A stretch of DNA of 64,000 nucleotides from Pelodera strongyloides (taxonomy: Eukaryota; Nematoda; Chromadorea; Rhabditida; Rhabditidae). The notes below the pieces were generated by a model. It was given only the letters and a program-made list of their open reading frames with translations, was not told where the DNA came from and ran no database searches. The stretch is from contig JAANDG010000408.1 in NCBI GenBank assembly GCA_036852015.1, forward strand, positions 1-64,000, given 5' to 3'. Position numbers and translations under genes: made by a program. Below are positions 18,912-59,575 of the stretch, one piece after another. Within the stretch, counting starts at the first letter, position 1. Every line of letters begins with the position of its first letter.

Positions 18912-19298
18912 GTGGAGGAGGTACTTGCTCATATAGGTGTATCATATCCCGTTGTTGATTTGTTTGCTATGGGCAAGCATCTGGTAAAGGTGCGTTTCGG
19001 CTCACGCGAGGCTGTGAAGGAGGTTCTTGGGAGAACTGCGAAGCTCAGGTTCTCTCCGTTCCCGAGGGTCCACATTAGACCCTCGTTAACGGAGGAACAA
19101 CGGGCGACGCGTTCGACCAACCTCCGGAACGCCCAGCATGAGCGGCGGGAGCGCGAGTCTCGCGGGGAGTTTGTGTTCATCAGAAACCTCCCTAACTTTA
19201 CGGAGTTTTCTGTCGAGCACAGACGTCCTGGCGGGGCACGGGCTCCTCCTAACCATCCGCACCCAAACCAAACCAGACGCGCGTCTAGGTGTAAATGA
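18912..19298 (+). pseudogene. LINE ORF1 C-terminal remnant
   Basis: This 128-residue frame contains LFAMGKHLVKVRFGSREAVK and HIRPSLTEEQRATRS, similar in style to the RNA-binding C-terminal part of nematode and insect LINE ORF1 proteins. It lacks the N-terminal portion. It overlaps the start of the endonuclease frame, as is common in LINEs. Confidence 0.6.
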
Positions 19299-20244: not shown

Positions 20245-22048
20245 TGGACCAAAGTTCCAGTCTAAAGGAAAAATACGAACTGGTTAGTAAACGTTTAAAA
20301 AGTGCTTCCGACAAATACTATGGTAATGTGGAAAGGAAGGTAATTGCTTCTGGGCAATTGAAACAGCTCTATAGGTATATCGGTTCGGGTACTTCGCGGT
20401 CAGTCAAGTCAAATCATACGGTAATTGATATGGAAAACCGTGTGCATGTATCTGATATAGATAGAGCTGATGCCTTTGCACATTATTTCCATTCAAATTT
20501 CACACAAGATGATGCACTTGCCCATAACATCGATTTTCCTGAATGTACCGTGCCTTTCCCCCATATGGATATGGATTCATGTTCAATTCTGTCACTTATT
20601 GATAAATGGAAAATCTCTTATTCTCGTACTCCCGACGGTTTACCTATGCATTTTTTTAAGGAAATTGGCCCTGCAATTTCCGCCCCTTTGTCTGTGATTT
20701 TTAATAGATCTTTAATGTCTGGTGAAGTACCTTACTTTTGGAAATGGTCCTGTGTTATCCCCCTTCCGAAGGGTGACCCTAGCAACTGTATCGTTAGTAA
20801 TTTTAGACCAGTTAGCATAACGAGTTTTCCCTGTAGAATTTTTGAGAAATTATTGGTGAAATGCATTATTGATTTTCCATTTGTAACAAATTGCTTCCTG
20901 AAGAGCAACATGGTTTCTTGAAAAATCGATCAAGGGAAACTGCTATATTACACAGTCTAAACGATTGGACGCTTGCTTTGGAAAACAGACAGCAAGTTGA
21001 CATTGTGTATTTTGATTTTGCAAAAGCTTTTGACCGCGTTTCTCATGAAAAATTAATTAGGAAATTGGAGGCGATGAACTTCCCTGATTATGTTTGCAGA
21101 TGGGTGAAGAACTGGCTTAAAGATAGGAAAATGTTTGTCCGCGTCGGTTCCTCTACCTCTTCCGTACTGGAATGTACTAGTGGTGTCCCACAGGGCTCAG
21201 TCCTAGGACCTATTTTGTTTTGTCTATACACTTCTGATCTTGCTTGTGAGCTTCGCAACTTAGGAATTAGCTTTGTTATGTATGCTGATGATATTAAGAT
21301 ATACAAGGTTATTGAAAATCCACTGGATAGAATCACCATCCAACAAGCCTTTAATCTAGTTCATAATTGGTCTTCCAAATTTCAGTTACCACTGGCACCA
21401 CATAAGTGTCAAGCTTTGTATATTGGTGGTTCTAACCCAAAGGTTGACTATCTGTGCAATGATATTGTGATATCAAAAGTAACTGAAGTAAAGGACTTAG
21501 GATTCATTATTACGGATAATATCTGTTTTTCGAAGCATATATATTTTGTTTGCAATTCCGCTAGAAAAAGAATGTTTGCTCTATTCCGTACACTGAAAAC
21601 TAGAAAAGCCAACGTTCTCGTTCTTGCATACTCTTTATACGTTAGATCTATTCTGGAGTCCGGGAGTGTAGTATTCAATCCCTACAAGAAAAGGGATAAA
21701 CTGGCTCTAGAAAGAATCCAGCGTATGTTTACGAAGCGTGTGTTTATGAGATCTCATTTAGTTGGATTTATGGATACACCAAGTAGTGAAACTAGAAATG
21801 AGCTTCTCAAATTAGATATGTTAGAGAATCGTAGAACGAGAGCAGATGCCAGAATGCTTAGGAAAATACTAGCTGGTAAATGTGGTTTACCTTTACAACG
21901 TATGTTTAAATTTAGATCGTGCAACTATTCTTCTCGTAGAGGTAGTTCTAGGATTGTTATTAATAGGGCATCAAGAAACGTTCGGAAACATTCATTTGTC
22001 CATAGAACTTCCCTTATGATTGAACAAAACGTTACAAACTCCTTTTGA
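20241..22048 (+). pseudogene. LINE ORF2, reverse transcriptase domain split by a frameshift
   Basis: Two overlapping frames, 20241-20921 and about 20880-22048, together encode the reverse transcriptase. Motifs seen are NFRPVSITSFP, EEQHGFLKNRS, VYFDFAKAFDRVSHEKL, SGVPQGSVLGPILF and the catalytic MYADDIKIY. The C-terminal part to NSF-stop is intact. The join near 20885 requires a change of frame. With the upstream break this element is dead. Confidence 0.9.
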
Positions 22049-28400: not shown

Positions 28401-29934
28401 CTTCCGGTTTGTTCAAATTTTTTTATTGAATTCCGGAGTGTCAAGGGGATTCTGCGCAGAAGGCATCTCCTGGCGCAGATTAAGTAAATCTCGAAAGGCG
28501 CATGATGCATGTACCCATAAATATGGCGGCAGCATAAAATAGAAATTTTGTCAGAAACGTGAACAAAACCCGCCGCAACGCACGCAAACAGGTGCATTGC
28601 GGCGGCCCGATAATTCAGTCGCTCCGTCGTACAGCGATTTGGCTTGGCTCTGTACACATGACCCGAATCCCACGTTGAAGTAATTTTTGAGAGGGATTTG
28701 AAATTCTTTTTTTTTCCTTATCAATTTTTTTTGTTTATTTTTATTTTCACTTTCCTTACCTTCAAAACGCAAGCTTTTTTTGAGCCCAACATTCAAAATC
28801 GGGTTGACAATCCCTTTAAAGGGTCAGGCTCACGAGATAAACAATGTTTTTACATTTTAGTATAATCTTCCCATTCTCCAAACGAGATCACACATGACAA
28901 TGTATTTGCTTAATAATTGCTATACAATTTGAATAGCCGGACATTCTGAAAAACAGTATGCTAAATATTTTAAAGAATGCACTCCCTACAACTCCCTATT
29001 TGTACCTAATTGCGTATATTGTTCAAAAATCTTACTGAAGAGGAGATTGTGTACAATATAGGTAAATAATTTGTTTAGCAGGAATTTACCCTGATTGAAA
29101 CATCAAGAATACGGTTTTTCAGAGTGTCGGGATATAATAATTGCCGTGGCTAATAGCTATAATTGCAACTATGTGTTCCTAAATGTGCGAACTCGTATGG
29201 GAAAAAAGGAATATTTTGGCAAAGTAGCAAAATTCTGTTTTCTCGTGAGCCTGACCCTTTAAGTCGAACGTTGTAGAGTATTAAAACACTACTGACAATG
29301 GAAAACATCCAGTAGCACTTAATGGCAAGATATGAAGTTCCTTTTTTTTAAAACGACGAAATAAGAGTGTCACGTATCATATCACACAGAAAGATAAGCA
29401 TAAGAATGTCACACAGAAAGTTAGAGGACGACATTTTTTCTAACACTGTCTACCATTTTAACACCTACATTTTAGGCGGAGCAAAGATCCAAAGATCCAC
29501 GAACAATTATTCAAATAATCACTTATATCTGGCTACCGAGCAGGACCAGTGTGGTGCAACCCTACAATTGCTGCAGAAACAGATCGAAAATCAAGTATTC
29601 CGTAAGTCAAAAGTGCTTTGCCAAAAGTGTAAAAGGGAAATTTGAGCTAACCAGGGAACAATAAGTTGTGTTTGAGGGCTCATAATTTTTTTTCTCTACC
29701 GATTAGCAGCTAATTTTTTCGATTTTCTTTTCCAGCACACCAAACTCTATCTAATAAATATAAAATGATAGGCAAATTCGTGATGTTGCCAACATATTGT
29801 TCCCTGGTAAATGGAAAGATTCATCACACACTCTGCATTTAGGTACGAACTACACAACCACTCCGGGAGAGGGATACGAATCGACTGGACTTTGGGTCTG
29901 GGACGAAGGCTACTGCGATAATGTGGAAAATTAG
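25414..29934 (+). CDS. Secreted protein with acidic Thr-rich linker and Cys-containing C-terminal part
   Basis: Exons: 25414-25524, 25787-25878, 26472-26596, a poorly placed one from about 26678, 27213-27332, 27473-27599, 28111-28243, 29476-29601 and 29843-29934. The start MRPFSSRICLLLPIGMIVV is a clear signal peptide. A Cys-bearing segment (NELCYFTDFEHG, SESSCPMP) follows. Then comes an acidic Thr-rich linker (TTEEPFTEESTF), then FLNGFWSNALASMQQC, DQCGATLQLLQKQIENQVF and GLWVWDEGYCDN before the stop. The last part faintly recalls a C-type lectin fold, but the calcium-site motif is missing and I do not assign it. Two junctions (26678 out, 28243 to 29476) are unresolved. It converges on the first member of the secreted family. 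Confidence 0.55.
26779..27044. repeat. Inverted-repeat element with ATGGGGTTTCCAAGTAT-type ends
   Basis: Imperfect inverted ends: ATGGGTTTTCCAAGTATTC at the left and CCATACTTGGAAACCCCAT at the right. A related element lies at 60119-60281 and a half-copy near 660-810. It sits in an intron of the plus-strand secreted gene. Confidence 0.55.
27715..27992. repeat. Inverted-repeat element, GCGATTCGCAC family, copy 1
   Basis: Left arm GCGATTCGCACTTGCGAAAA and right arm TTTTCGCAAACGCGAATCGC are inverted. The middle repeats GATCTATTTCAAAATAG-type units. A second copy with longer ends lies at 45927-46207. Confidence 0.7.
28816..29262. mobile_element. TTAA foldback element, GGGTCAGGCTCACGAG family
   Basis: TTAA at 28816-28819 and 29259-29262. 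Inverted ends AGGGTCAGGCTCACGAG and CTCGTGAGCCTGACCCT match exactly. It lies in an intron of the plus-strand secreted gene. Confidence 0.85.
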
Positions 29935-29986: not shown

Positions 29987-31787
29987 TTATTCTCCACAAA
30001 AGGTTATATAATCATCAACAAGAATGCTTTCGAATGTGTCTCCGTCTACCAAATAGCTATGTCCATCGGCATTACATTCCACCAGAGGACCAAGGTAAAT
30101 GGTGCCGTCTGGTGCTTGAACTCCAATTTCGGAAGTTTCTTCACATCTGTAAATAAACACGCGCTACTTTTCACAGCTGCATATAGGGCGGCTGCAATCA
30201 AGATAAAAAATTTTTTTTAGCGTACCACTACAAGTACCCCATCATTTTTCGTGAGTCTGACTCCTTAAAGGATCGCAGTCACTACAAATTCGTATTTTTT
30301 ATTCTCTTTTCATTAAATATTCAAATATGTGAAGAAAACTACGATTCCCGCACCAAAGTACGGCAGAACGAACTCAGGGAGAAAAATCCCTGTTATACCG
30401 TAGTTTATAATTGCCCGTATAGAGTTTCATAATAAATACCCTGCAGTGATAAACCACGCGCCAGGTGTAACACTGCTGGCTGTTCACTCTCCAAGTACCC
30501 CTGGCAATTGCATATATGCACCGGCGACGGTCATTTACCAAAACTCATTTTCATTGATTTCTCTCCCTAAGTTCGCTTTTATGTGGCTTTTTACAGGCTG
30601 CATATTGTTTTATAGACCTTCTTGCATCTAATAAAAATCGAATAAAAAAGTTGAATTTGAAGTGACTGCATTCCTTTAAAGCGAAATGCTAGCCCCTTTG
30701 GAAAATTTGCATATGATAAGCAAATCCTATGTATCCTATGCTAATTTTGTACGATCGTCCACGGCAATCGTACAAAATTAGCATAGGATACATAGGATTT
30801 GCTTATCATATGCAAATTTTCTAAAGAGGCTAGCATTTCGCTTTAATTTAGCATACCGATAAGCTCCACACATGTAGGCGAATTTGAAGAGAAGGTCATC
30901 AGTTGCCGGAAGGCAATTCACATACTGCATCGGACACGTAGTGGGCACTCCGGTAGCAACTTGTGGGCACGTGAACTGACAGTCTGGATTATATGTTTAT
31001 TAGAAAGTAAACTGAAACAACCATGTGATATAATTAACAGGACTAAAGGAATAATGCAGCGATTGTCCCCGTCACACCTAGCTGGTCTAAGAGGAGCCCT
31101 CTTACAGACTTCTCACTTATTCAGCCCTTATTGTTTTATCACACCGTCGTCGCTGCTCACCACGAGCCTTAAACCTATATAATGTTCGGTTGAACAACGG
31201 TGAACCATCGATACTACGTGTCCAGATGTTCGAAAAAAATTCGGTTACCTGTTGTAGTCGTCGTGGTCAATGTCGTTGATGTAGTAGTTGTGGAAGCTGT
31301 CGTTGTGCTTGTAGTTGATGTGCTAGTTGTCGTACTGGTTGTCGTGCTTGGCAAACTTGTAGTACTTGTGGTAGTGGCGATAGGTGTGGATGTGGTCGTC
31401 GCCAACGATGTCGTCACCAACGATGTCGTCGCCAACGATGTCGTCGCCAACGACGTCGTCGTTGGAATCACAGTTGCTGAGATAATTACAGTCTTATAAA
31501 AACTACAGAAATCTGAATAACAAAAAAAAATAATAATTCAAAAATTTTGTCAAAACGACAGCACTTGTGATTTTGGAGTTCCTTGAAGAGTATAGATAAA
31601 TTGCACCCAGTTATATTAACTAAAATCCGTAAAATGGAGCGGGAGGTCATTGAAGAACAAAGGAAAGAATGTTAAGGATGATCACAATGTCATAAAACCA
31701 ACATGTTGTCTGTTCCGGTGGCTTCACAGGAATACATGACTTTGCGACTACTGGAAAAAGTAGCAAAAATACAATCAGAAACATCAT
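29987..31787 (-). CDS. Secreted Thr-linker Cys-rich family, member 1 (199 aa)
   Basis: Exons: 31703-31787, 31249-31476, 30857-30983 and 29987-30146; phases 1, 1, 2; 600 bases including the stop. Exon 1 encodes the signal peptide MMFLIVFLLLFPVVAKS and SCIPVKPPEQ. Exon 2 is a Thr/Ser linker of about 75 residues with a repeated SLATT unit. Exons 3 and 4 make the shared domain: DCQFTCPQ, PTTCP, NCLPATDDLL, MCGAYR, then EIGVQAPDGTIYLGP, VECNADGHSYL and DYITFCGE-stop. The domain has eight Cys, so probably four disulfides. It is extracellular by its signal peptide. No known family was recognised and function is unknown. Intron 3 contains two abutting TTAA elements. Confidence 0.85.
30265..30679. mobile_element. 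TTAA foldback element, second copy of the 2986-3416 family
   Basis: TTAA at 30265-30268 and 30676-30679; ends AGGATCGCAGTCACTAC and complementary GTGACTGCATTCCT. It is similar to 2986-3416 in reverse orientation. The right TTAA is shared with the next element. It lies in intron 3 of family member 1. Confidence 0.85.
30676..30846. mobile_element. Short near-perfect TTAA hairpin abutting the previous element
   Basis: TTAA at 30676-30679 and 30843-30846. Arms of about 80 bases are almost perfect inverted repeats: AGCGAAATGCTAGCC at one end, GGCTAGCATTTCGCT at the other, with a CGTCCACGG centre. Confidence 0.9.
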
Positions 31788-32249
31788 TTCAGTAACTGAC
31801 AGGCTCTTGGTAGTCCCATAGGAAAATATTTTGACATTTACAGAATCAATTACGAAATATGGATGAGCTGGCCGATGTAGACTGATCTGGGCGTGTAATG
31901 AACATATTCGCTCGGAGAAACTGGGCAGACAAACTCTGCTCTGCTAGTCGTTCTGGTTGTTCAAAAAAGTTCTCAACGACGCCAACCAGATTTTTCTATT
32001 GTAAACTATGATAACTGAAAGCAGGATCAAGTTCCAAAATAACCGAATGATTAACAAATGCGGACTACCCTACCAATATACTATTTGTTCGTACATCGTT
32101 TGTTTTAAATCAAGAAGTTAATAATCTCTCAATAAATAAAATAAACTAAAATGCGTTGAAAGAAACCATTGCCTTTTTGGAGCTGTGCTGTGCCTGGCAG
32201 TGTGATACGGCAAAAAGACGACAGTCTAAAAAGTTCCGGAAAAGGAGAT

Positions 32250-32440
32250 TTATCAAATTAGCGAGACAAACAGTGTAACATGAATCACCTCAAACAAATC
32301 TAATTGATAGTGGCATTTTTGCACAATAGTATTAAATTTAGACAAATATTTAGGAAAGAATCGTAATCTTGGGTGGTCCTTCCTTTTATGGTTATATAAA
32401 TTGGCCAAATAGGAGATTGAAAGTTGAAACAAAAAACTTG
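32250..32440. repeat. Duplicated upstream segment, copy 1
   Basis: This stretch upstream of member 1 (TTATCAAATTAGCGAG, then AATTGATAGTG, TTGGGTGGTCCTTCC) is similar to 36096-36240 upstream of member 2. It shows that the duplication unit reaches past the coding exons. I see no convincing gene in 31.8-33.4 kb apart from the weak frame at 32953. Confidence 0.6.
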
Positions 32441-32952
32441 AGATGTGAAAAACCATTGAAAATATGCCAGGCCGATATAAAAGAACACATTCTTGGACTT
32501 GGCACGTTGCGGTTGGTAGTGGACACTTTTATTGGAGTTCAACTGCTGAGCATACTTGATGATTCCAAGCCCAGCAAGCAGGAAACTTGAGATGAATAAG
32601 ATCTGGACTCAGCGCAAAAAAAACTACAACTCGGTATGCCCAAGGTGTATAAAAAGTTTCTTTTTAAAGGTGCATTTCTGCAATCAAATAAAGGGAACGA
32701 CGTTGGATGTTTATGTGCCCATCAACGACACGAAAAACGAAATAATTGCACAAACCACCCGAAAACCGTCGGTTGCCGGTCATCACATGGTATTCACCGA
32801 AAAAACATTCAGTGACTGGTCAATGACCATTTGGTGACTATGTGGTGACCAGTTGACGACTCTTATCGAGAAAACTTGGTCACGACGAAGAAGTCACCAA
32901 TCAAGTGGCACCAAATGGGTTGGTGCGCGAAAAAATCAGGGAACCATAAAAC

Positions 32953-33219
32953 ATGATTTTTACGAGGACAATAATTGCTTTGCTTGCTGATTTTGTGCTT
33001 ATTCTTGTGTCTCGTTTTATTGTGATATATAGGTACACCGAGGAGTTCTTTATTTTGATTTGGTTGATCTACGCATTATTGGTGTGCTTTCTGTTCATAG
33101 TTTCGCAAAACATTGCCAATATCGAGTGGCTTAAGCCATATGCGGCCCTGCGATATTTTATTGTGGTGCATAAGAGCCTGCGGGTATTCACTGTGCTAGT
33201 TTTTGAGTATCTGTTGTAA
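32953..33219 (+). CDS. Short hydrophobic open frame (88 aa), doubtful gene
   Basis: An intronless ATG-to-stop frame with about three hydrophobic stretches (IIALLADFVLILVSRFIVIY, FFILIWLIYALLVCFLFIV, FTVLVFEYLL). It has no recognised homology and no visible splice support. It may be chance in A/T-rich DNA or a small membrane protein. Confidence 0.2.
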   Translation: MIFTRTIIALLADFVLILVSRFIVIYRYTEEFFILIWLIYALLVCFLFIVSQNIANIEWLKPYAALRYFIVVHKSLRVFTVLVFEYLL

Positions 33220-33611
33220 TTAGCTTTACTTTTACCTAATTGTAAGCCCACTCATGCAGTTCTTATTTCTTGACACATTTTTTGACGTAACAATGCAATT
33301 TAGCCCACATATCACGATCGCGGCAAAATTGTATGAATTTTTATTTGAAATAAAATAAAAGCATTGAACAGTGAGATACAATAATATGACACGTACCGGT
33401 ACCAGTATATATTTAAATTTTTCGAAACAACATGGAAACGAATCGAGTTTTCTTTTATTATTTAGTTTAACTTATATCTGCCGATGTATTTCAGATAACC
33501 TCTTTTTAAGGTTGCGTTCAAAAACAGTTACAGCCGTACGAAGTGAATTAATAAACAAGAAGGTAAGTGAGTGTCTAAATTGACATACAATTTGTTTAGA
33601 CAATATCAGAT

Positions 33612-33691
33612 ATGAACTACACTAGTGAGAAATTGACGGATACAACCCTACTGGTTTCTGGGTATGGGAAACAAAATACTGCGACGCTTGA
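33612..33691 (+). pseudogene. Fragment of the last exon of the 25.4-29.9 kb gene
   Basis: ATGAACTACAC and, after a gap, GYNPTGFWVWETKYCDA-stop match GYESTGLWVWDEGYCDN of the exon at 29843-29934. The reading frame is broken between the two parts. It sits just outside the stop of family member 2, exactly as the full exon sits outside member 1, so it is a relic of the same block duplication. Confidence 0.65.
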
Positions 33692-34400
33692 CATTTTATA
33701 CGTTTTATGTTCACTTCGCAATAATTGTTAATATACGCCGCAAAAGGTAATAAATCCATCGACCATAAACTTTGTGCCCGTTGTTCCATTTGTCAAATAA
33801 TTATGCCCATCGGCATCACAGGTTACATATGGTCCTATATGAATTGTACCATCGGGTCCTTGGACTCCAATTTCTGCCGTGTCGTCACATCTACAATAAA
33901 ATACGAAAAACGTAATAAACTAAATACACGAAATACTTCCAATTCGGAATAGAAATTACAGATGCCAGAAGAACCTAAATATGACATGTTGGTGTGGATC
34001 CGACCATCTGAATCGCCGGTAAACACACTCCCGAAAAAGCAATGCATAACATTCTATTAACATCATCTTACTAGAGTGAGACCTGTTCTGGGAAACAGCA
34101 GTAGCACATTGCACTCTGCATTGTAATGAAGCCGCACAGTTCAATCGAGAGTCCGGTCACATAGAGATGTCGACGCATTCTATGGTACTTCTAATCCATA
34201 TTTGTGCGAAAATCATGTTCCTGGGCCCGGTCAGTTAAGAAATGGATTATATAAACACCCACTGATATGCCCCGCAACCGCCTGTGGCAATGAAGAGAAG
34301 ATCTTCTGTAGCTGGCACGCAAGAAGGGTAGTCTGTTGGACATATTGTGGGTACTTCAGGTGTCAACGGCGGGCATGCGAAGAGACAACCTATAAAGTCA

Positions 34401-34846
34401 TTAAAGGGAGAGGCCCATGAGAAAAAAGTTGTCCTTAATTTACTTACACAGAACGTCCGGAATTTTAGAAATACTTCTGTGAAAACAGCATTTATTTACA
34501 CCTAGAACTCAGAGAGTTATTCCCCGGCAAACTGTTCGGCCAGGTACCGTAATCAGAACGTTTTTACGGTTTATATCCGTTCATTTTCATCCTTTCTCTT
34601 CAAAGTAATGTTAAAACGAATGAGAATCATGCATATGATATTAAAAAGGCGTTTCCAATACTGTAATGCCCAAAAGCGCAAAAATTTATTCTGACTACGG
34701 TACCTGGCCGAACAGTTTGCCGGAGAATAACTTTGCGAGTTCTAGGTGTAAAGAAATGCGGTTTTGACAGAAGTATTTCTCAAATTCCGGACATCCTGTG
34801 TAAGTAAATTAAGGACAACTTTTTTCTCATGGGCCTCTCCCTTTAA
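34401..34846. mobile_element. TTAA foldback element, GGGAGAGGCCC family, copy 1
   Basis: TTAA at 34401-34404 and 34843-34846; ends AGGGAGAGGCCCATGAGAAA and TTTCTCATGGGCCTCTCCCT are exact complements. Inner arms include a GGCAAACTGTTCGGCC-type motif. A second copy lies at 39375-39825. It is in intron 2 of family member 2. Confidence 0.9.
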
Positions 34847-34982
34847 TGATCTATTCCATCACATGCACATTAGCTGTATAGCAAAAAATAAGTCAATGTA
34901 CTTCTCCTCTACCGAAGAAATAAAGAAGCGCAAAGCCCCACGTGGAAGAAATAGTTTTAGAATAATAAAAAGATCCTCACTG

Positions 34983-35165
34983 GTTGTTGTTGTCGTCGTT
35001 GACGTCGTCGTTGTCGTCGTTGTCGTCGTTGTCGTCGTTGTCGTCGTTGTCGTCGTTGTCGTCGTTGTCGTCGTTGTCGTCGTTGTCGTCGTTGTCGTCG
35101 TTGTCGTCGTTGTCGTCGTTGTCGTCGTTGTCGTCGTTGTCGTCGTCGTTGTCGTCGTCGACGTC
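34983..35165 (-). repeat. 9-base coding microsatellite encoding poly-Thr
   Basis: About twenty copies of GTTGTCGTC (plus strand) inside exon 2 of member 2. On the minus strand every codon is ACG or ACA, so length changes in steps of three codons alter the linker without shifting frame. Confidence 0.9.
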
Positions 35166-36095
35166 GTTGTAGACGTAGATGAAGTTATAGTTGATGAACT
35201 AGCAGTAGTGCTAGTCGAGGTGCTAGGAGAGCTCGTGGTCGTTGCCAATGCTGTCGTCGTCGGAACTGCGGTTGCTGCATAATTGATGCAGAGTATACAC
35301 AACAACAAAGAAAATATGACAAAATAAATTTCGAACGCGGCACTTAAAACTATTTGATAAACTACGTTTTCACAGGCTTTTTGACGTATTCACCATTATA
35401 TTATCGAGATCAAAATATTAATAAACATGTTTTGAAGTATATTCTGACTTTATCTGAGGAAAGACATTTTTGTGAAATAAATAGCGTCGATTATTGAAAG
35501 AAATGAACTAACTTGTTGTTTCTGGCGGTTTAATAGGCAAGCATGTTTTTCCAATTCCAGAGAAAAGGAGCAAAAATATACTCATTGTCAGAAGCAGCAG
35601 CATTAAAAATTTTTTAGCAAGGGCAGTCCTCTTCAAGTTCTTTTTACACTTGTTGTCATACAAGAGTTAGAAAATAGGGTTTGCGGTGGCTTCATTTTCT
35701 TATTGAGCCTTGGGCGTGGGATTACGGATCTCGAATCTTGACAGGCGAATTCCGTGATGCTAGTCTTTCTTCACGTTTTTTTCTTTTTTCAAAAAAAAAA
35801 AAAAAAAATGTTCAAAAAGCTCGTGAACTAGCTTTTCGTAAATTGATTATATGAGAGGCGAGGCAAGTCCGGTAAATATAAAATTGAACTCGCCATTAAA
35901 ACGAAAATCCAACATACCGCAATACAAGCATGTTGTAGAAAAGTAAGACGCGCCATGCGCCTTTTTGATCCTTTTCGAAAAGACAGGTCATCACCCAAAT
36001 CTGTGAACAAAATAACATACCAAAAAAGGATCCAAGACATATCCACCAAAGAGACTGGATAAAAAGATAAGAACTGTGCAAAAAGACTGTGGCAA

Positions 36096-36240
36096 GGACA
36101 AATTTATCAAATTAGCGAGGCATCCTTGGAACAGGGAATTTAATTGATAGTGACATTTTCGCGCGAGCGGATTAAATTTGGACAAATGTTTATCGCTATC
36201 GTGCCACTTGGGTGGTCCTTCCCAGTCCAAATTTATGAAT
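36096..36240. repeat. Duplicated upstream segment, copy 2
   Basis: Counterpart of 32250-32440 (TTATCAAATTAGCGAGG, TTGGGTGGTCCTTCCC). No gene is supported in 35.6-36.6 kb. Confidence 0.6.
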
Positions 36241-36640
36241 AGGGGTGGTGGAAATGGGCGAAACAGTCCTGATAGACAAATAAAAGTCAATAAAAGTCGA
36301 GCGATACTACTAGCTACCAAGAAACACGCAAGACCAAGCGAAATTCATATAACAACAGCCAGCTAATTGGTAAGGCATTTTCCAAGTAAAGGACAAGGCA
36401 AAAAAAAAGAGAACCGTAGAGAACAATAGAACACGCTAGTTGTTCACACACAAAGACGATAAAAAATAATCAACAACGGCTACCTAAAAACAGCTGCATA
36501 CTAAAAAACGGCAATCATTAGCTACAATATCCTCAGAGGTGTGTGGTCCCGCAACCCTCAATTTCGGGTGATGGTTTGGCCGTCCAAAAAAACAAGCGCG
36601 TTATAAGGATTTATTATTTCCAATTAAAAATCTGTGCTTC

Positions 36641-37010
36641 TTAAAGGGTCAGGCCCATTTCAAATGACCACTAGTTTTGATTTCCATCTGATTCTCCATG
36701 TCAAATATAGTAGGATGCATATTCACCAATTTACCGTGGGCAGTCATACCCAACTATTTATCGCAGTTGGCACGCTGATTGGCCAATATCGCAATTGCCA
36801 CGCCCAATAGAGCATATTGCCCAATTAGCGCGAAGGGGCGTGACAACTGCGATAGATAGTTGGGTATGACTGGCAATGGTAAACTGCTGAATACTGCGTG
36901 AATTTTGCGCTTGAAAATTAGAAAAATATCGTATCCTACTATATTTGTCATGGAGAATCAGATGGAATCATAAAAAACAGGGGTCACTTGAAATGGGCCT
37001 GAGCCTTTAA
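36641..37010. mobile_element. TTAA foldback element, GGGTCAGGCCCATTT family, copy 1
   Basis: TTAA at 36641-36644 and 37007-37010. Long inverted arms include AGTCATACCCAACTATTTAT and its complement. Related copies lie at 51905-52322 and 60892-61309. Confidence 0.9.
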
Positions 37011-37413
37011 GGCATGTTTATTGAAGCTGACACACCTTTCGATAAAAGGAAAGAAATTGAACAATTAAATCTCGTGAGCCTCCTCCTTTAGAGGTGTACC
37101 ACCGAAATTAACATCTCTTCGATGACAACCTTTCCGACTGATACCTAATTGATTATCATATTTTCATGGTCATCTTATTATAAAAGGAGCAGAGTTTACT
37201 TTTTTTGTTTGAAGCCGCGTGTGAACGCAACGAAAATTTGAATATCTAAAAGCTATAAAAGGAGAGCCGGAGCCCCGTCTTGAGCAAGCGAAATTCGAAT
37301 TTTATTCCGTGGTTTTTCAAGATACGTTGCAAACGTTTCACATAAGTGTGCCCACTGATGTTCCTGCAGTTTGGACTTTGAAAGTCGCCTCAGGCGGCGA
37401 TAGCCGTCTGGTG

Positions 37414-38481
37414 TTAATATACTCCACAAAATGTAGTAAATCCATCAACAAGAATCAACTGAAGTGTAGTAGCATTCACCAAATAACTATGACCATCCTC
37501 TTTGCAGTTCACATACGGTCCTATATGAATTGTACCATCGGGCGCTTGTACTCCAATTTCCACCGTTTCATCACATCTGCAGAAAATAACTAACTTTTTA
37601 GAGAAGTACACTATATATTCAACAGTTTTGTGAGCATAGGTGCATAGGATATCTTTCCTAAATTTTCTTCTTGTTGAAAGAATTTTCAGTAATTCATTTT
37701 AAGGGGCCGCTTGTTGAGACTTTTCAGTAATTAGTTTTAAAAGATCGATTATTTAATTAAAAACTCCACTGATATGATCCACAATCGCTAGAGGATTTGT
37801 AAAGAAGATTTTCTGTGGCTGGAACGCAAGAAGCATAGTAGATTGGACATGTGGTTGGCGCTGCTGGTGTCAACGAGGGACATGCAAACAGGCAATCTAA
37901 AATGAAATGTTTGCTTACAAGCGGTGTAGCCGGCAACTATAGGTTGGTGAGAGAAAAGGGAGGATCACGAGGATCAGTAGAGACAAGATCAGTAAGGCTA
38001 GGACTAGTAGGAAATAATCTCTAGACGAGAAAATTTCACCAGTGGTCGTTGTCGTCGTTGTCGTTGTGGTGGTGGTGGTTGTGGACGTTGAAGTGGTGCT
38101 CGTGGTGGTAGATGAAGTTTGAGTTGTAATTATTGAACTAGTACTAGTGGAAGACAGCGTGGTGGAAGAGCTAGCGGTCGTTGTCAATGATGTTGTTGTC
38201 GGAACCACAGTTGCTGAATAGGCAATCGTAAGGTATGTGTTTTCCGAAGGTTTGCAAATGGATGGGACTTTATTTGAAATGTATTTCATACGGCCAGTTA
38301 TAACTTTCCTCATAAACCCGAAATATTACTATGAAACTTATACTATACTTATACAGTAGTCTTTAACTAATCATGCGAATAATGAAAATAACTAACTTGT
38401 TGTTTCAGGTGGTTTATTAGGTAAACATGTTTTTCCACTTTCTGAGAAAAGCAGCAAGAATATACACAGATCCATCAGCAT
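37414..38481 (-). CDS. Secreted Thr-linker Cys-rich family, member 3 (182 aa)
   Basis: Exons: 38397-38481, 38040-38213, 37770-37896 and 37414-37576; phases 1, 1, 2; 549 bases including the stop. Signal peptide MLMDLCIFLLLFSESG, then KTCLPNKPPE. The linker is about 58 residues of Thr and Ser. The domain reads DCLFACPSLTPAAPTTCP, SCVPATENLLY, DCGSYQ, then CDETVEIGVQAPDGTIHIGP, VNCKEDGHSYL and DGFTTFCGVY-stop. The third and fourth exons are the same lengths (127 and 163 bases) as in member 2. All splice sites are canonical. It is the cleanest reference copy against which the deletion in member 2 can be seen. Confidence 0.88.
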
Positions 38482-38905
38482 TCTAACAAACAGTTCTTCG
38501 TTATGTATGAAATATAAATGAACTTATATTGACAAATTTGCTTGTTGTTTTTGTAATAAATGTTATGTGTTATGCTAAAATAGGGGGGTTATCTGCCTAG
38601 CGCAGGCTTTCCAAGATCCTTGGGCGTGTGTGCGGGCACCGTTCTAGAAACTAGTCAGACAAAAGGTCACGCTTCGTTTTTCCGTGTTTCATTTATGGTT
38701 TAGAGGCGTGGACAACTAGCTTTTCAAAAATTTGATCACAAACAACCGTATATGAAAAAAAAACACCGACTTTCGTACGAAATTCAAATGTTCATGATTC
38801 GTAGAAAGAGCGAAAATCATATGACAAGATAAGATGTCCTGTAACATTCTGATTTTTGAAGTATAAACACTGCAACATTTGAGGGTTCTGGATAATGTGT
38901 TTATT

Positions 38906-40537
38906 TCATATGTACTCTTCATACACTCCACAAAACGTAGTAAATCCAGCGACAAGAATTAATTGGCCCGTTTCGGAGTCCTGCAAATAGCTGTGCCCAT
39001 CGGCTTCGCAGTTCACGTAGGCTCCGAGGTGTATAGTGCCGTCCGGTGCTTGCACTCCAATTCCCATTATATCATCGCATCTGACAGAAAAGAGACAATT
39101 CGAATTAAATAAATGTATATTTTTACGCAAGCTCTAGGGCTTATTCGCTTATTCCTACGCGAGTTCCTGCATATTGCAAAATGCAAATTCCTAAATAATT
39201 ACATTTCCTACGCGAGCTCCTAGAGCAAACCACTAAATGTTGCGCGTAAATTAGAGATACCATCACTCCACATACAAATTGGATTCCATGTCCATCGTCT
39301 GAAACAAACCTAATTATTTGATGTTAGCAGTTTTGGGAGGAGTAAATTTTCTACCGCAGCGCATGGTTAGTTGCTTAAAGGGAGAGGCCCACTAGAAAAA
39401 AGACTTTCTTAATTTACTTGCACAGAAGGTCCGGAATTTCAGAAATATTACTATGAAAGCCGCATTTCATTACGCCTAGAACTCGCTGAGTTATTACTCG
39501 GCAAGCCGTTCTGGCCATGTACCATAGTCGTAATCAATTTTGCTCTTTTAGGGTATTAAAGTAATTGGAAACGCGTTCTTGTAATGGTATCAATGTTCTT
39601 CATTCGTTTAACAATTATTATGTAGAACGCTAATGTATGCATATAAACCGTAAAAACGATATAACCTTTCTGACTACTGTACCTGGCCGAACTGTTTGCC
39701 GGGGAATAACTCTGTGAGTTCTAGGTACAAAGAAATGCGGATCTCATATTAACATTTCTGAAATTCCGGACATTCTGTGCAAGTAAATTGAGGAGAACTT
39801 TTTTCTCATGGGCCTCTTCCTTTAATACGTTGCCTCCAAGACAAGGTAAATATAGATATTATCTAGTCACTCTACTGATATGATCCGCAACGTCTTGAGG
39901 ATTTGTACAGAAGGTCGTCTGTTGCTGGAACACAAGATGCAAAGTAGATCGAACATGTAGTTGGTACGGCAGGTGACAATGGCGGGCACGAAAATAGACA
40001 ATCTGAACTATTTGAGCTACAAACTAATTCTCAAATGTTTCAGAGCGAGCTTCCTTCTTTCGCTACAGTACACAAAAAAGCATCATTATTTTCATATTGT
40101 TGGTCCCGAGAGTGTCGAGCTAATATGTAGCAATGTAGCAATATTCATACAATAAGTAATGAGGGAAAGTCGAGATGAAAAACTTCACCGCGTGAACATT
40201 TTTGAAATTTAGTGTGTAATTGAATTAGTACCGATGACAAATTATAAATAAATAGTAAGTTCCTTTTCGTGAGCTCCACATCGTAAAAAAATGTGGCAAA
40301 TTTTTCAAAAAAAAAATATTTTTACCGTTGGTTGTTGATACTGCTGATGGAAGCGTCGTTTCTAAAATGACAAACAGAGTGGAAACTAACAACGCCCTTG
40401 ACTGACACTTCTAAATAAACACTTAAGGTCAATGCTAGTTTAAACCAACCATTCGGTGATTCTTCATCCTCCTTACATGTATCTGCGCTTGCTGCGAACA
40501 CGACGAAAACAAATATTAGTGACAAATTCCCGTCCAT
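38906..40537 (-). CDS. Secreted Cys-rich family, member 4, short linker (141 aa)
   Basis: Exons: 40450-40537, 40326-40361, 39876-40002 and 38906-39080; phases 1, 1, 2. Signal peptide MDGNLSLIFVFVVFAASA, then DTCKEDEESPNG. The linker is only ETTLPSAVSTTN. The domain reads DCLFSCPPLSPAVPTTC, SCVPATDDLLY, RCGSYQ, then MGIGVQAPDGTIHLGAYVNC, DGHSYL and GFTTFCGVYEEYI-stop. The tail is four residues longer than in members 2 and 3. Intron 3 holds a TTAA element. It is head-to-head with member 5. Confidence 0.88.
39375..39825. mobile_element. TTAA foldback element, GGGAGAGGCCC family, copy 2
   Basis: TTAA at 39375-39378 and 39822-39825; inverted ends AGGGAGAGGCCCACTAG and ATGGGCCTCTTCCT. Related to 34401-34846. 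It is in intron 3 of family member 4. Confidence 0.88.
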
Positions 40538-41246
40538 ACCGTCCTTAAATAACTGTTCTAAAAATATTTAGAATTAAGCTATGAGGCAAGCATAGCATAA
40601 TCAACACAAGAGTTCTATACAATACAACTTCTCCCACGGTGAATAACTGAAGGGATAATGCGATTGAAGAACTGAAATCAGAGCTTGATGGGACTAAGTA
40701 ATAAGAAGTGACAAGTGACAAGTGATGAAATTATGCCTAAAAATGAAAACAGTTATTGAACCAATTGAACGTATACAAATTGGTTTCTGTATTTCTTCAG
40801 CACAATAATAATCCATAAAGTGTGAGCCACCTTTTTTAAATGTATCAAAGACTCAAAACAAGATATGGATGGCACTCTCAACTGTGGTTCTGAGAATTCA
40901 AACGTTAAACTAAATTTCGGGAGTAATATTGCCGATTTCCTTTTCATAATAAAAAAAACCCCGGTGGCTCACATCTCAAAAACGTGGCTGTATTGTACGA
41001 ACTGACTTTATGGACTATTATTGTGCAGAAGAAATAAGAAAACCACAGTTATTATTACTATTATTTTACTCAGCACGATGTTAGGTATTTGTTCAATTGT
41101 TCAATAAGCATTTTCGTTTTTCATTACGCCATAATTTGTAACGATTTGGCATTTTCTAAACCACATCAATCAATACCTTTAGTTCCACAGGTGATCATTG
41201 CATATACATAAATGAAATGACATTCTTATACGCCGTTGGAGAATTT
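40538..41246. promoter_or_regulatory. Shared upstream region of divergent members 4 and 5
   Basis: About 0.7 kb separates the start codons of two family members transcribed away from each other. I see no other gene and no specific factor site. Regulation from this interval is inferred from position only. Confidence 0.35.
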
Positions 41247-42183
41247 ATGTTTAGAATTCCAGCGTTGATGCTTGTCGCGGTAATATTTGTAATCGTCTTG
41301 CTCACATCAAGCGCCGACTCCTGCAAGGAGGATGAAGGTTGGTTTAATAGAGCATTGGGTCTAGGCAACAAACGAACTTTCCGTCGGGCGTATGGGCGTT
41401 ACTAGACTGCTTCTTTTTTATTGGATTGTCTTTTGGTCATGCATACACTTTTAGTCTGAATCAGGTTATTTGTTGTATTTTGCTCCTGTTTAGAAACGAC
41501 GCTTCCATCAGCTGAATCAACAACCAAAGGTAATCCCTATATTGTGAAAAGGGTTACTCTCCGCAATCACCACGTCGTCGACCTGTACAGCTACAACTAT
41601 GACAACCACAGGCAAAAGACATACATGGACATGAAGGTTGCACATTATCAGAGTAACCGAATCAATGGTAATTTTTAGACTGCCAATTTACTTGTCCGCC
41701 GCTGACACCAGCTGTTCCTACGACATGTTTTGAATACTATGATTCTTGCGTACCAGCTACAGAAGACCGGATCCGCAAATTTCCCTATGTATGTGGATCA
41801 TATCAGTGAGTTGTGGTTTATGTCATAGGTCATAGGTAGGGACCCTATCATATTCGTCGGGTGAATTTGTGTATGCAAAAATAAAAATCATATGCTTGTG
41901 TGGTGGAAAGTGGAAAGTACACTTTTTTTATCATGAAGTTGTATCTCTAATGCAACAATAGTGCAGGGTCATAGAACATATGGAAATGTGTATATGTGTA
42001 CCTTTACTATTCTGTTTTAGGTGTGCGAATACGTTTGAGATCGGTGTACAGGCATCCGATGGGACACTGTATATCGGACAGTCTGTGGATTGCCGAGAAG
42101 ATGGTCACAATTATTTGATCGACGGAGAAACCCTTACTACGATCCTTGTCGACGGATTTACTACATTTTGCGACGAGTTTTAA
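41247..42183 (+). CDS. Secreted Cys-rich family, member 5, short linker (138 aa)
   Basis: Exons: 41247-41337, 41494-41529, 41679-41805 and 42021-42183; phases 1, 1, 2. An upstream in-frame ATG at 41217 would add ten residues; I chose 41247 because it gives a compact signal peptide (FRIPALMLVAVIFVIVLL). Exon 1 ends SADSCKEDE. The linker ETTLPSAESTTK is almost identical to that of member 4. The domain reads DCQFTCPPLTPAVPTTC, SCVPATEDRI, VCGSYQ, then CANTFEIGVQASDGTLYIG, VDCREDGHNYL and DGFTTFCDEF-stop. It is the only member on the plus strand. Confidence 0.88.
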
Positions 42184-42315
42184 TACCTTGCAAACAAACG
42201 TTTTATAAGAATCAAAGAGAAACTGCATGTACATACTAGTTATCGCAATACTTTGTTCCCCACACTCAAAAGTCGGCTTGTTCGTAACCATCAATGTTCT
42301 CACTGGTGCTTCCTC

Positions 42316-42395
42316 CTTACTAATATTCTTGTCGACGTATCTGCTACCTTTTGCGCGAGTTTTAATAATTTTAACAAACGCGAATCAAAGAGCAG
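42316..42395 (+). pseudogene. Decayed duplicate of the last exon end of member 5
   Basis: CTTACTAATATTCTTGTCGA, then ACCTTTTGCGCGAGTTTTAAT and AATCAAAGAG, matches 42131-42222 in order, with scattered changes. It is a tandem partial copy of the 3' coding end plus 3' flank. The stretch from 42.4 to 42.9 kb shows nothing else. Confidence 0.7.
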
Positions 42396-57421: not shown

Positions 57422-59575
57422 TTAGACGAGGCCACAAAAAGCCGTAAAGTCATCAACGTTAATCCGTTCACCAGCCGATCCATCTCCGATTAAAAGTGAT
57501 CTTGTGCCGTTTGGTGCACAATCATACGTATTTCCGACGTACTGTGTTCCGTCGGGAGCTACCACCCAAATGTCGAATGTAGCAAGGCAGCTGAATGAGT
57601 TATTTTATGTAATATGGAAATCTTTATCATAGCAGTGAATAATTACACACAAACGAACAGTAAAGCAAAGCACTAGCCTATCACAATGAGGCCCAGCCAC
57701 CTATGGAGAATTGGCCTAAATGTGAGCCGTATTAGGCATAAGCTTGTCTGCACTACTGGAATTGTGCCCGGAAGGGTAAAATAAATATCATACATAAAAT
57801 ATATTTCAGCAATAAGATCACAGTATACTACGCCGTACCAACGCTGCGGCACATTGTATTGTGAGCTTGCTGATGGTATGGTACCTGGAACATTGCTCTC
57901 CGAAAGCTAAATAATAAACTAACATTAAAGGGACGGGCCCATCAAAATAAACCCATATATTGCATGTTTTTATAATTTGTATAAAGGGGGTTTATTATAA
58001 TATATGTACACTAAATTTCGGCTAGACTTTATCACGCTGAAATTTTTCGGTGTCGATAAACGCATAAGTGTACCGTAGAAGACACACAATTGCACCTTTA
58101 TTTTCTTGTCGCGTGTCCCGGGGGAATATGGCTATATAGACAGATGGTCTCCCGGGTCCCAACCAGAGCGAGGTATCCTCGGGAGACACGGTAAGGAAAT
58201 AAGGGTGCAATTGTGTGTCTTCTACGGTATACTTATGCGTTTATCGACACCGAAAAATTTCAGCGGGATAAAGTCTAGCCGAAATTTAGTGTACATATAT
58301 TATAATAAACTAGAGTGGGGTCAAAACGGGTTGAGCGGTGAACCGCTCACAAAGAGGCGAGTCAGTGAGTTGAACCGCCCTTTTGTGAAAAGGCGGGCTC
58401 GGGTTGACCCGGACCGGCCTTGTGAAAAAGAGGCGACTCCGGGTCAGAGCCGAAAATCGAAAAGAAAAACGGACGGGTTACCTATGTTAACTTAAACTTC
58501 TCGATAATATTTAGTATGTTATATACGATAATAATTGCCCTCTACCGTTTACAATTATATTTAATTACATTTACTTGACGAAAGATCCGTAAATTGGATA
58601 TGATTCACGTGGGTCACTCACTACGGGCTGGCTCATGAGTCACTCTCTAATCGGGTTGACCCGTGAACCGCGCGTGATGAGTCACTCATGTGAATCGCTC
58701 AACCCGTTTTGGCCCCACTCTATAATAAACCCCCTTTATACAAATTATAAAAACATGCAAAATATGGGTTTATTTTGATGGGCCCGTCCCTTTAAGTACA
58801 AAAAACAAGGAGAATTGGAACGCCGCACGCTATGTAACATTCTAAAAGCAGCCATCTTCAAAGATAAGCAATGGTTCAATGATGTGTAATGATGGAGCAA
58901 ATCTAACCTAAAAGTTCCGCAGCGTACTTCACTTCTGAAAATGACGTCGCCAGCCGCTGGCACACATCCGTCGTACGTGCCAGGGCAGAAATCGGGAACA
59001 GCACCGGGCAGAGGTTCACATGCCATTGTACAGTCCGCTGAAAATAATAAATCGGCTTGCTTTCTGAGTAGGAAGGTGCAGCAAGAAACCTTATGTTATG
59101 GGCGAATTTCGCGACTACAGTATTAAATGTTGAAGTAAAATAGCAATTCGAATAGGTTAATACATAAAAGCACAGTGTTTTTTGGCTCACTCGTCATAAT
59201 ATGTTCAAGGGAGGTGATCTTATTATATAAAGGAAAAGAGTTTGTTTGGTCTTTTGTTTGTATGAACGGAACGAAAGTTATTCATAAAGTCGGAGAAGAG
59301 CCCGTAGGACTGGTATGTGATTTTCAAGCTCTTACTTGTCGTCATTGGTGCATTTGTGGCTGTGAACGTGGGCGTCGATGCTGAAGTAATCAAAGTCACT
59401 GTGAATTCACTAGGAAAGTGCTGTAATTTTCACATAAAATTGAATTTCGCTACCCTGAGCATGAAAGAGGCCAGTGGAGTTGCTCAAAAGAAATCATACC
59501 TTCTGGTTCATCATCCTTACAGGAATCAGTTTGTGCTGAGAAGAAGACTAGTACGAATATCAGCGAAAGGAACAT
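57422..59575 (-). CDS. Secreted Cys-rich family, diverged member 6 (139 aa)
   Basis: Exons: 59500-59575, 59336-59380, 58908-59037 and 57422-57590; phases 1, 1, 2 as in the main cluster; 420 bases with the stop. Signal peptide MFLSLIFVLVFFSAQT, then DSCKDDEPE, like members 4 and 5. The linker is ASTPTFTATNAPMTT. The domain reads DCTMACEPLPGAVPDFCP, GCVPAAGDVIF, RCGTF, then ATFDIWVVAPDGTQYVG, DCAPNGTRSLL and DDFTAFCGLV-stop. Cys positions are kept but sequence is much changed. It lies 15 kb from the cluster, beyond the DOMON and che-1 genes. Intron 3 carries a TTAA element with a nested hAT-like element. Confidence 0.83.
57925..58795. mobile_element. TTAA foldback element carrying a nested insertion
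   Basis: TTAA at 57925-57928 and 58792-58795; ends AGGGACGGGCCCATCAAAAT and ATTTTGATGGGCCCGTCCCT are exact complements. The arms include the CACAATTGCACCTTTATTT/GGGTGCAATTGTGTG pair. The right arm is interrupted by the element at 58311-58722. Confidence 0.93.
58303..58730. mobile_element. Nested hAT-like non-autonomous element with 8-bp target duplication
   Basis: TAATAAAC occurs exactly at 58303-58310 and 58723-58730. Between them, 58311-58722 begins TAGAGTGGGGTCAAAACGGG and ends with the near-complement (CCCGTTTTGGCCCCACTCTA). An 8-bp duplication and such ends are typical of hAT transposons. It is 412 bases with no transposase. Confidence 0.9.

What the first reader, a model, noticed from the sequence alone, without database searches (positions are those of the whole stretch)
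29987..42183. Local family of small secreted Cys-rich proteins with an exchangeable linker exon
Five copies here and a sixth at 57422-59575 share one gene plan: signal peptide exon, linker exon, then two exons making an eight-Cys domain (DC..C..P..C..SCVPAT..L..C..Y, then EIGVQAPDGT..C..DGH.YL..FC). Intron phases are 1, 1, 2 in all, and exon 3 is 127 bases in members 1-5. The linker exon ranges from 36 bases to 294 bases, from ETTLPSAESTTK to long poly-Thr. Conserved domain with a freely varying mucin-like linker suggests surface or secreted products under diversifying pressure. I recognise no named family; function is inference.
Basis: partly seen in the sequence, partly recalled or inferred. 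Interest (0 to 1): 0.8.

Follow-up and report, generated by a model that had tools for sequence, protein, structure and literature searches.

The report
Nematode mucin-like genes with swapped fronts
A roundworm carries a family of small, probably secreted proteins built from a conserved eight-cysteine domain joined to one of two front ends, one of them long and threonine-rich like a mucin, and the DNA shows that these parts have been recombined between gene copies.

Summary
All six gene models hold: 18 of 18 introns GT..AG, phases 1,1,2, exon 3 of 127 nt (130 in M6), eight aligned domain Cys. The genome is a nematode's (SL1 leader at 315 places). The family is not local: 23 distinct copies on ten contigs entered a domain tree, besides fragments. 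No Pfam family, solved structure or homologue was found, but no nematode proteome could be searched. The linker does not vary freely: there are two front modules (exon 1 + exon 2), A (C.RTQPPEE, 132-294-nt poly-Thr exon) and B (CK.DE, 36-63-nt exon). Fronts lie on the domain tree as if at random, and domain trees holding A or B as one clade are rejected (p-AU 2e-6, 0.001). Two C100 genes share a tract from exon 1 through exon 3 with 20 mismatches in 790 columns, against 122 in 478 outside. The domain is under purifying selection (dN/dS 0.05-0.22 where defined). Best reading: mucin-like coat proteins in the style of Toxocara TES-120 with a new cysteine domain, reshuffled by recombination in phase-matched introns. 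Function is inferred.

The parts
31703..31787 (-). M1 exon 1: signal peptide + front A (SCIPVKPPEQTT)
31249..31476 (-). M1 exon 2: 228-nt poly-Thr linker, symmetric phase 1-1
30857..30983 (-). M1 exon 3: Cys domain, first half (127 nt)
29987..30146 (-). M1 exon 4: Cys domain, second half
35513..35603 (-). M2 exon 1: signal peptide + front A (TCLPIKPPETT); a later ATG may be the start
34981..35274 (-). M2 exon 2: 294-nt poly-Thr linker; contains a 9-nt tandem array (34989-35164, 19.2 copies, 94% matches)
34263..34389 (-). M2 exon 3: Cys domain, first half (127 nt)
33728..33890 (-). M2 exon 4: Cys domain, second half
38397..38481 (-). M3 exon 1: signal peptide + front A (TCLPNKPPETT)
38040..38213 (-). 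M3 exon 2: 174-nt poly-Thr linker
37770..37896 (-). M3 exon 3: Cys domain, first half (127 nt)
37414..37576 (-). M3 exon 4: Cys domain, second half
40450..40537 (-). M4 exon 1: signal peptide + front B (DTCKEDEESPN)
40326..40361 (-). M4 exon 2: 36-nt short linker (ETTLPSAVSTTN), 91% identical to M5's
39876..40002 (-). M4 exon 3: Cys domain, first half; nearest to M3 (77% nt)
38906..39080 (-). M4 exon 4: Cys domain, second half
41247..41337 (+). M5 exon 1: signal peptide + front B (DSCKEDE); the second ATG may be the start
41494..41529 (+). M5 exon 2: 36-nt short linker (ETTLPSAESTTK)
41679..41805 (+). M5 exon 3: Cys domain, first half (127 nt)
42021..42183 (+). M5 exon 4: Cys domain, second half
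59500..59575 (-). M6 exon 1: signal peptide + front B (DSCKDDEPE)
59336..59398 (-). M6 exon 2: 63-nt linker
58908..59037 (-). M6 exon 3: Cys domain, first half (130 nt)
57422..57590 (-). M6 exon 4: Cys domain, second half; the domain groups with C100_216 (95/85)

Best explanation
A nematode multigene family of small (138-224 aa in the window) secreted proteins made of three modules: a signal peptide with one extra Cys just behind it, a linker, and a C-terminal eight-Cys domain encoded by two exons. SHOWN: gene plan and phases; genome-wide copies; two front modules (A long poly-Thr, B short) that do not follow the phylogeny of the domain they are attached to; one recombination tract between two paralogs that spans the linker exon; purifying selection on the domain. 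INFERRED: secretion; O-glycans on front A, which would make it a stiff mucin-like stalk that holds the domain in an extracellular coat or mucus; pairing of two chains through the odd ninth Cys; the domain, held constant by selection, doing the binding. Recombination between paralogs in phase-matched introns (the linker exon is symmetric 1-1) and slippage of the Thr-coding repeats would change stalk length while leaving the domain intact.
For: Six models with phases 1,1,2; the same plan in paralogs. Exon 1 type and linker type go together in 19 of 19 copies where I saw both. Fronts on the 23-row domain tree need 7 (A) and 6 (B) changes, against shuffled means of 6.8 and 6.2; shuffles as low in 372 and 294 of 500; starred branches force at least 5 and 4. 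Domain trees holding B or A as one clade are rejected (p-AU 0.001 and 2e-6), while exon 1 groups B (94/96; partly by definition, as classes were named from exon 1 and linker). C100_207/C100_226: tract with 20/790 mismatches, 122/478 outside, 0 of 200 shuffles reach it; linker exon 132/132 identical, exon 4 136/163. dN/dS 0.05-0.22 where defined. Front A linkers are 79-85% Thr+Ser in the eleven measured. Nine Cys from the one at the end of exon 1 onward in 6 of 6 window members (M3 has a tenth inside its signal). No hydrophobic tail after the last Cys (by eye).
Against: No transcript, protein, glycan or localisation data. Front B linkers in the window are only 12-21 aa, so the mucin reading covers only part of the family. 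Within the window alone the discordance is suggestive, not significant (M4+M5 as a clade: p-AU 0.088; M1+M2+M3: 0.079), and the identities behind it stand on a background of about 60-70% for unrelated stretches with the same aligner; the 36-nt linker comparison is noisy (M3/M5 86%). Direction cannot be told: fronts may move, or domain exons may be homogenised locally. Only one recent tract was established. A few copies look broken (C100_219r, C521_65, C846_22).
Confidence: 0.6

Rival explanations
1. The discordance comes from local homogenisation of exons 3-4 (concerted evolution by gene conversion between neighbours), while fronts A and B are two old lineages that stay put.
For: Sister domains with different fronts are often neighbours: M1-M5 form one domain clade (100/100) with 3 A and 2 B; C326_157 (B) and C326_162 (A) lie 5 kb apart and are sisters at 98/89; C521_65 (B) and C846_38 (A) are sisters at 100/98, and a near-identical copy of the former (4963 of 4965 aligned bases, 72 gap columns) lies on the latter's contig. 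M4 and M5 stand head to head with alike fronts.
Against: C521_67 (no linker recognised) and C20_163 (A) are sister domains (98/93) on different contigs, so proximity does not explain all. In the one clear recent tract the linker and exon 3 are shared while exon 4 is not, so the domain is not the unit.
Confidence: 0.3
2. It is a divergent branch of a known nematode secreted family: the C6 domain (PF01681), or another Cys domain carried on Thr-rich linkers.
For: C6 matches occur in this genome (6, of which 5 over the cut-off); those read are also split in two exons, and Thr-rich stretches lie beside some of them. The last four Cys are loosely spaced as in C6 (by eye).
Against: No C6 hit in 20 of 20 members scanned, of 23; profile comparison shows nothing (probability 0.1, but the C6 profile had only two sequences); the intron is in another place and phase in the two C6 genes read; eight Cys against six.
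Confidence: 0.2
3. Small Cys-rich immune or antimicrobial effectors (or food- or toxin-binding gut secretions) in which the linker only spaces or protects the peptide.
For: Small, disulfide-rich, apparently secreted, in clusters with recombination between copies and some broken copies.
Against: Low dN/dS across the domain, with invariant P, G and V and nearly invariant I positions besides Cys, fits structural constraint better than an arms race; site-level selection was not tested.
Confidence: 0.2
4. Reproductive secretions (copulatory plug, seminal fluid or eggshell glycoproteins).
For: Thr-rich mucins and fast-changing paralogs are common in such secretions (general knowledge, no call).
Against: No expression data either way.
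Confidence: 0.12

Closest known systems
Toxocara canis TES-120 mucins MUC-1 to MUC-5 (review PMC3611597, passages read)
   Same: Small secreted nematode proteins (176-316 aa in the review's table) with a Ser/Thr-rich core of varying make-up joined to short Cys-rich domains; several paralogs.
   Different: Their Cys domain is the six-Cys ShKT, repeated at one or both ends; here it is a single eight-Cys C-terminal domain with no ShKT hit, and front B members have almost no mucin core.
Schistosoma mansoni polymorphic mucins SmPoMuc (PMC2576457; abstract, outline, section 18 part 1 of 2 and section 19 read)
   Same: Small multigene family with a variable 5' mucin part, mosaic genes from recombination between paralogs, and purifying selection on the conserved part.
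   Different: A trematode's genes, of 15 exons; exon 2 occurs there in tandem copies; polymorphism between individuals was shown there and not here. No sequence comparison was made.
Heligmosomoides polygyrus TGM family (PMC10516467, passages read)
   Same: Nematode secreted multigene family with Cys domains each made by two exons, and exon modularity.
   Different: CCP-like domains in tandem; no Thr-rich linker is mentioned in the passages read; no sequence comparison was made.
Pfam C6 domain PF01681
   Same: Domain with C-x2-C at the start, coded by two exons; Thr-rich stretches nearby in this genome.
   Different: Six Cys; no Pfam or profile similarity; intron in another phase and place in the two genes read.
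Meloidogyne incognita Mi-MUC-1 (PMC6638177, summary and passages read)
   Same: Ser/Thr-rich nematode mucin-like protein inferred by its authors to be on the surface coat; a functional model for the coat reading.
   Different: Single gene studied; not compared in sequence here.

Membership tests
C6 domain (PF01681) | Scores over the Pfam cut-off | tested here: not met
   No C6 hit at E<=10 in 6 of 6 window domains or in 20 of 20 members scanned, of 23
C6 domain (PF01681) | Profile similarity to C6 members of the same genome | tested here: inconclusive
   hhalign probability 0.1 over 7 columns, but the C6 profile had only 2 sequences
C6 domain (PF01681) | Same internal intron (phase 0, some residues behind the fourth Cys in the C6 genes read here) | tested here: not met
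   Here phase 2, directly before the sixth Cys; only two C6 genes read, by eye
DUF281 (PF03436) | Pfam match | tested here: not met
   None in the members scanned nor in the genome at E<=0.01 (in which no control genome rang)
Toxocara TES-120 mucins | Signal peptide and secretion | tested here: inconclusive
   Hydrophobic start in 6 of 6 window members; no signal-peptide program was run, secretion not measured
Toxocara TES-120 mucins | Ser/Thr-rich mucin core | tested here: inconclusive
   Met for front A (79-85% Thr+Ser in 11 measured), hardly for front B (12-21 aa in the window)
Toxocara TES-120 mucins | Flanking ShKT six-Cys domains | tested here: not met
   No ShKT hit in the domains scanned (exons 1-2 were not in those scans); eight Cys with other spacing
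Toxocara TES-120 mucins | O-glycosylated, in surface coat | not testable with these tools
   Needs protein chemistry and localisation
SmPoMuc-like polymorphic mucins (works-like comparison) | Mosaic genes from recombination between paralogs | tested here: met
   one recent tract, older discordance across the family
SmPoMuc-like polymorphic mucins (works-like comparison) | Purifying selection on the conserved part | tested here: met
   dN/dS 0.10-0.22 in 9 of 10 window pairs and 0.05-0.17 in 4 of 6 C100/C20 pairs; the other 3 pairs saturated
SmPoMuc-like polymorphic mucins (works-like comparison) | Variation between individuals | not testable with these tools
   One assembly only; the near-identical contig pairs show nothing on this

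The most novel reading that the evidence does not exclude
The clusters act as an exon bank: because the family introns have one phase plan (1,1,2) and the linker exon is symmetric, neighbouring same-strand copies (M4-M3-M2-M1) could be joined in new combinations, by ongoing ectopic recombination between individuals and perhaps by splicing across genes, so that a worm population carries a changing repertoire of stalk-plus-domain mucins, a nematode counterpart of SmPoMuc.
Probability: 0.1. Interest if true: 0.8.

Novelty: new variant of a known kind. Interest (0 to 1): 0.5.

Why it matters
It appears to be an undescribed cysteine domain on a nematode mucin plan, and it offers a natural test of how modular secreted proteins evolve: two fronts, one domain, fixed intron phases and a readable recombination tract. 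Nematode coat mucins can decide what sticks to a worm (Mi-muc-1 knockdown lowered bacterial endospore attachment; passages), so a family whose stalk is swapped while the domain is conserved is a candidate for that interface. The coat role itself is not shown.

Tried and rejected
Homologue searches gave nothing: the protein collection with A1 (5 of the 6 window proteins, E<=1; the best 7986 candidates scored), with M4 alone (E<=10, 7 candidates) and with A3 (20 of 23 domains, E<=10, 364 candidates). That collection may hold few nematode proteins and no positive control was run, so this is not evidence of absence elsewhere. A solved-structure search with the six window domains listed 10 sequences, nine of them designed repeat proteins (best E 1.7e-8, no single stretch passing; that Cake and SAKe names mean designs is recalled), matched through the DGTIYLG-like part; with 20 members these disappeared (best E 1.9, MORN repeats). 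Rejected as chance. Weak Pfam hits (DUF7316 E 0.14 in 2 of 20; Glycos_transf_2 E 0.036 and LptD_2 E 0.32 in 1 of 20 each) rejected.

IQ-TREE codon runs did not print omega; I used Nei-Gojobori estimates instead. The comparison C100_285/C100_219r aligned usefully only in exon 4 and was not used as a conversion case. An exon 1 search (13 matches) hit exon 1 of known members or their near-copies in 11 cases; the other two (C100:212395, C100:223656; E 0.05-0.06) were not examined further, so I saw no exon 1 of this kind joined to another domain, but did not rule it out.

Literature: searches (0 papers; 3 listed of 4; 20 of 24; 12 of 23; 8 of 8; 15 of 23,894; 6 of 6) listed no paper that by title and start of abstract describes this family. 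Open-licence papers only; four papers were read in part and none whole.

A first and second attempt to hand in this report were returned: the first for a check against the calls, the second because four fields were not objects.
Full report
WHAT IS THERE. Six genes in the window share one plan. I located every exon boundary in the raw DNA and translated the joined exons. M1-M4 and M6 lie on the minus strand, M5 on the plus strand, head to head with M4. All 18 introns run GT..AG; phases are 1, 1, 2 in all six; exon 3 is 127 nt in M1-M5 and 130 nt in M6. Products are 138-224 aa: a hydrophobic start, a Cys just behind it, a linker of 12-98 aa, and a C-terminal domain of 95-100 aa with eight Cys at matching positions. 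With the one at the end of exon 1 that makes nine Cys in all six; M3 has a tenth inside its signal. Starts are predictions: M5 has a second ATG behind a possible splice acceptor, and M2 a later one too.

WHICH ORGANISM. It is a nematode; I could not name the species, so I do not know whether it is parasitic.

NOT A LOCAL FAMILY. Searches of the genome with exon 4 and exon 3 peptides gave 28 and 30 matches, and with a second pair of queries 30 and 29; the tool calls such counts lower bounds. Three sets are near-copies: C862 against C100:285k (3041 of 3043 aligned bases identical, 46 gap columns), C846 against C521 (4963 of 4965, 72 gap columns), and C323 against C846 (exons compared by eye). 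After dropping these, 23 copies on ten contigs (C408, C100, C326, C521, C846, C20, C283, C288, C572, C156) entered the tree. Left out were C521_81 (exon 4 only), C846_22 (exon 4 cut short) and weak matches on C644, C1155 and C35. C100_219r lacks the second Cys and shows no stop in the 60 nt behind exon 4, and C521_65 has an apparently shifted exon 3 (by eye); both may be broken but were kept in the tree, the latter partly masked. Of 16 further copies measured, 15 gave a usable exon 3: 127 nt in 10, 118-133 nt in 5, phase 1 in and 2 out in 15 of 15.

TWO FRONTS. Exon 1 and exon 2 come in two matched kinds. Front A has an exon 1 near C-x-R-T-Q-P-P-E-E (C-[IL]-P-x-K-P-P-E in M1-M3) and a linker exon of 132-294 nt; the eleven measured are 79-85% Thr+Ser. 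Front B has C-K-[ED]-D and a linker exon of 36 nt (M4, M5, C521_65, C326_157), 54 nt (C288_1) or 63 nt (M6). Where I saw both exons, the kinds agree in 19 of 19 copies (14 A, 5 B; in C100_219r the linker has no clear acceptor). Only the linker was seen in C326_157 and C100_222 (doubtful exon 1), and only exon 1 in C100_216. In C521_67 no linker was recognised; its exon 1 ends 161 nt before exon 3. So the '36 to 294 bases' are two classes. In M2 the linker contains a 9-nt array of 19.2 copies, a likely source of length change.

FRONTS DO NOT FOLLOW DOMAINS. On the domain tree (23 rows, 97 columns) the labels need 7 changes for A and 6 for B, no better than shuffled labels (means 6.8 and 6.2; as low in 372 and 294 of 500); well supported branches alone force at least 5 and 4. 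Sister domains with different fronts are C326_157/C326_162 (98/89), C521_65/C846_38 (100/98) and C521_67/C20_163 (98/93); M1-M5 form one clade (100/100) with both fronts. In the exon-1 tree (21 rows, only 30 columns, few resolved forks) B forms one side of a branch (94/96) and A needs 2 changes, with 0 of 500 shuffles as low. That grouping is partly by definition, since the classes were named from exon 1 and linker motifs; the independent test is the domain tree, where holding B or A together is rejected (p-AU 0.001 and 2e-6; the labels were set before the tree was built). Within the window the same pattern shows in nucleotides: M4 matches M5 in exon 1 (80%) and exon 2 (91%) but M3 in exon 3 (77%) and exon 4 (75%), where M4/M5 have 69% and 68%. 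This is weak on its own: unrelated stretches score about 60-70% with this aligner, M3/M5 reach 86% over the 36 Thr-coding bases, and p-AU is 0.088 for M4+M5 and 0.079 for M1+M2+M3.

A RECOMBINATION TRACT. C100_207 and C100_226, about 19 kb apart, were compared along their length. A tract from just before exon 1 to the end of exon 3 has 20 mismatches in 790 columns; outside it there are 122 in 478; none of 200 shuffles reached this contrast. Within it the linker exon is 132 of 132 identical and intron 2 236 of 239 (exon 1 81 of 88); beyond it intron 3 is 60 of 105 and exon 4 136 of 163. C100_226's exon 4 is closer to that of C100_222 (blastn 89.3% over 178 nt) than to that of C100_207 (84.4% over 180 nt). 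A segment carrying the linker has therefore passed between paralogs, or been kept alike, by gene conversion or unequal exchange. Two pairs were tested in this way; the other, C100_285/C100_219r, aligned usefully only in exon 4. So one recent case is established.

SELECTION. Nei-Gojobori dN/dS for the domain is 0.10-0.22 in 9 of 10 pairs of M1-M5 and 0.05-0.17 in 4 of 6 pairs of C100_207, C100_222, C100_226 and C20_163; the other three pairs are saturated. Only four pairs have dS below 1 (0.34-0.96), with ratios 0.08-0.21. The domain as a whole is conserved by selection. Single sites, and the linker, were not tested.

HOW IT MOST LIKELY WORKS. Shown: the plan, two fronts, exchange, purifying selection. 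Inferred: secretion (hydrophobic start; no tail behind the last Cys; no prediction program run), O-glycans on the Thr-rich linker, a role as a stalked coat or mucus protein with the domain as the working part, and possible pairing through the odd Cys. The linker exon is symmetric (1-1), so loss, gain or swap leaves the frame intact, which would fit the linker-free look of C521_67. The chief rival for the discordance is local homogenisation of domain exons; sister domains with different fronts are often neighbours, which fits it, but C521_67/C20_163 do not, and the C100 tract does not respect the front-domain boundary.

WHAT IT IS CLOSE TO. No Pfam model matches credibly, and solved-structure searches found nothing credible. 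Exon 4 alone is predicted as six strands with fair confidence and resembles small barrels no better than a common arrangement would. C6 fails on Pfam score, intron place and Cys number; the profile comparison is inconclusive. In plan it is nearest to Toxocara TES-120 mucins, which join mucin cores to ShKT domains (passages), and in genetics to SmPoMuc, whose genes are mosaics with a constrained constant part (sections read). It belongs to neither: ShKT was not found here, and individual variation is untested.

LIMITS. There is no expression evidence. No eukaryote proteome could be searched, so 'new domain' means new to Pfam and the collections named here. Searches of the paper library listed nothing on this family.

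Noticed in passing
window 30676-30846, 34398-34849, 36640-37011, 39375-39825, 57925-58795: Inverted-repeat elements in or between the family genes (outer arms 80, 161, 42, 137 and 75 nt, 83-99% complementary; regions picked by eye), several with TTAAAGGG-like ends, read as TTAA-type miniature transposons. The ones in M2 intron 2 and M4 intron 3 are kin (73% over 467 nt).
   Followed up: partly
window 29842-29932 and 33608-33690, plus strand: Two similar plus-strand exon-like stretches just behind M1 and M2 (..GYESTGLWVWDEGYCDNVEN* and ..GYNPTGFWVWETKYCDA*), the second with stops upstream; alignment score 50 against a best of 43 in 300 shuffles. Perhaps remains of another gene copied together with the family genes.
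   Followed up: partly
window 42315-42392: A second, degraded copy of the end of M5 exon 4 and its 3' flank lies about 180 bases downstream (local alignment score 93 against a best of 42 in 300 shuffles).
   Followed up: partly
G000 C100:222580-222654 (minus): An inverted 75-nt copy of exon 3 sits inside intron 3 of gene C100_222, so it could form a hairpin with the real exon.
   Followed up: no
window 15132-17384, minus strand: Two long Ser/Thr-rich open frames (427 and 243 aa) that look like exons of a large mucin-like protein in the same window (by eye).
   Followed up: no
window 18867-22048, plus strand: Open frames (384, 237 and 391 aa, and a shorter one before them) that look like a non-LTR retrotransposon (endonuclease-like and reverse transcriptase-like; by eye).
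   Followed up: no
G000 C26:1276-12412: Nineteen exact SL1 copies spaced mostly about 600 bases apart in one tandem array.
   Followed up: no
window 40537-41247: M4 and M5 are head to head with alike upstream DNA (92% over 38 nt) and alike exons 1-2, so this end looks like an inverted duplication with a possibly shared promoter.
   Followed up: partly
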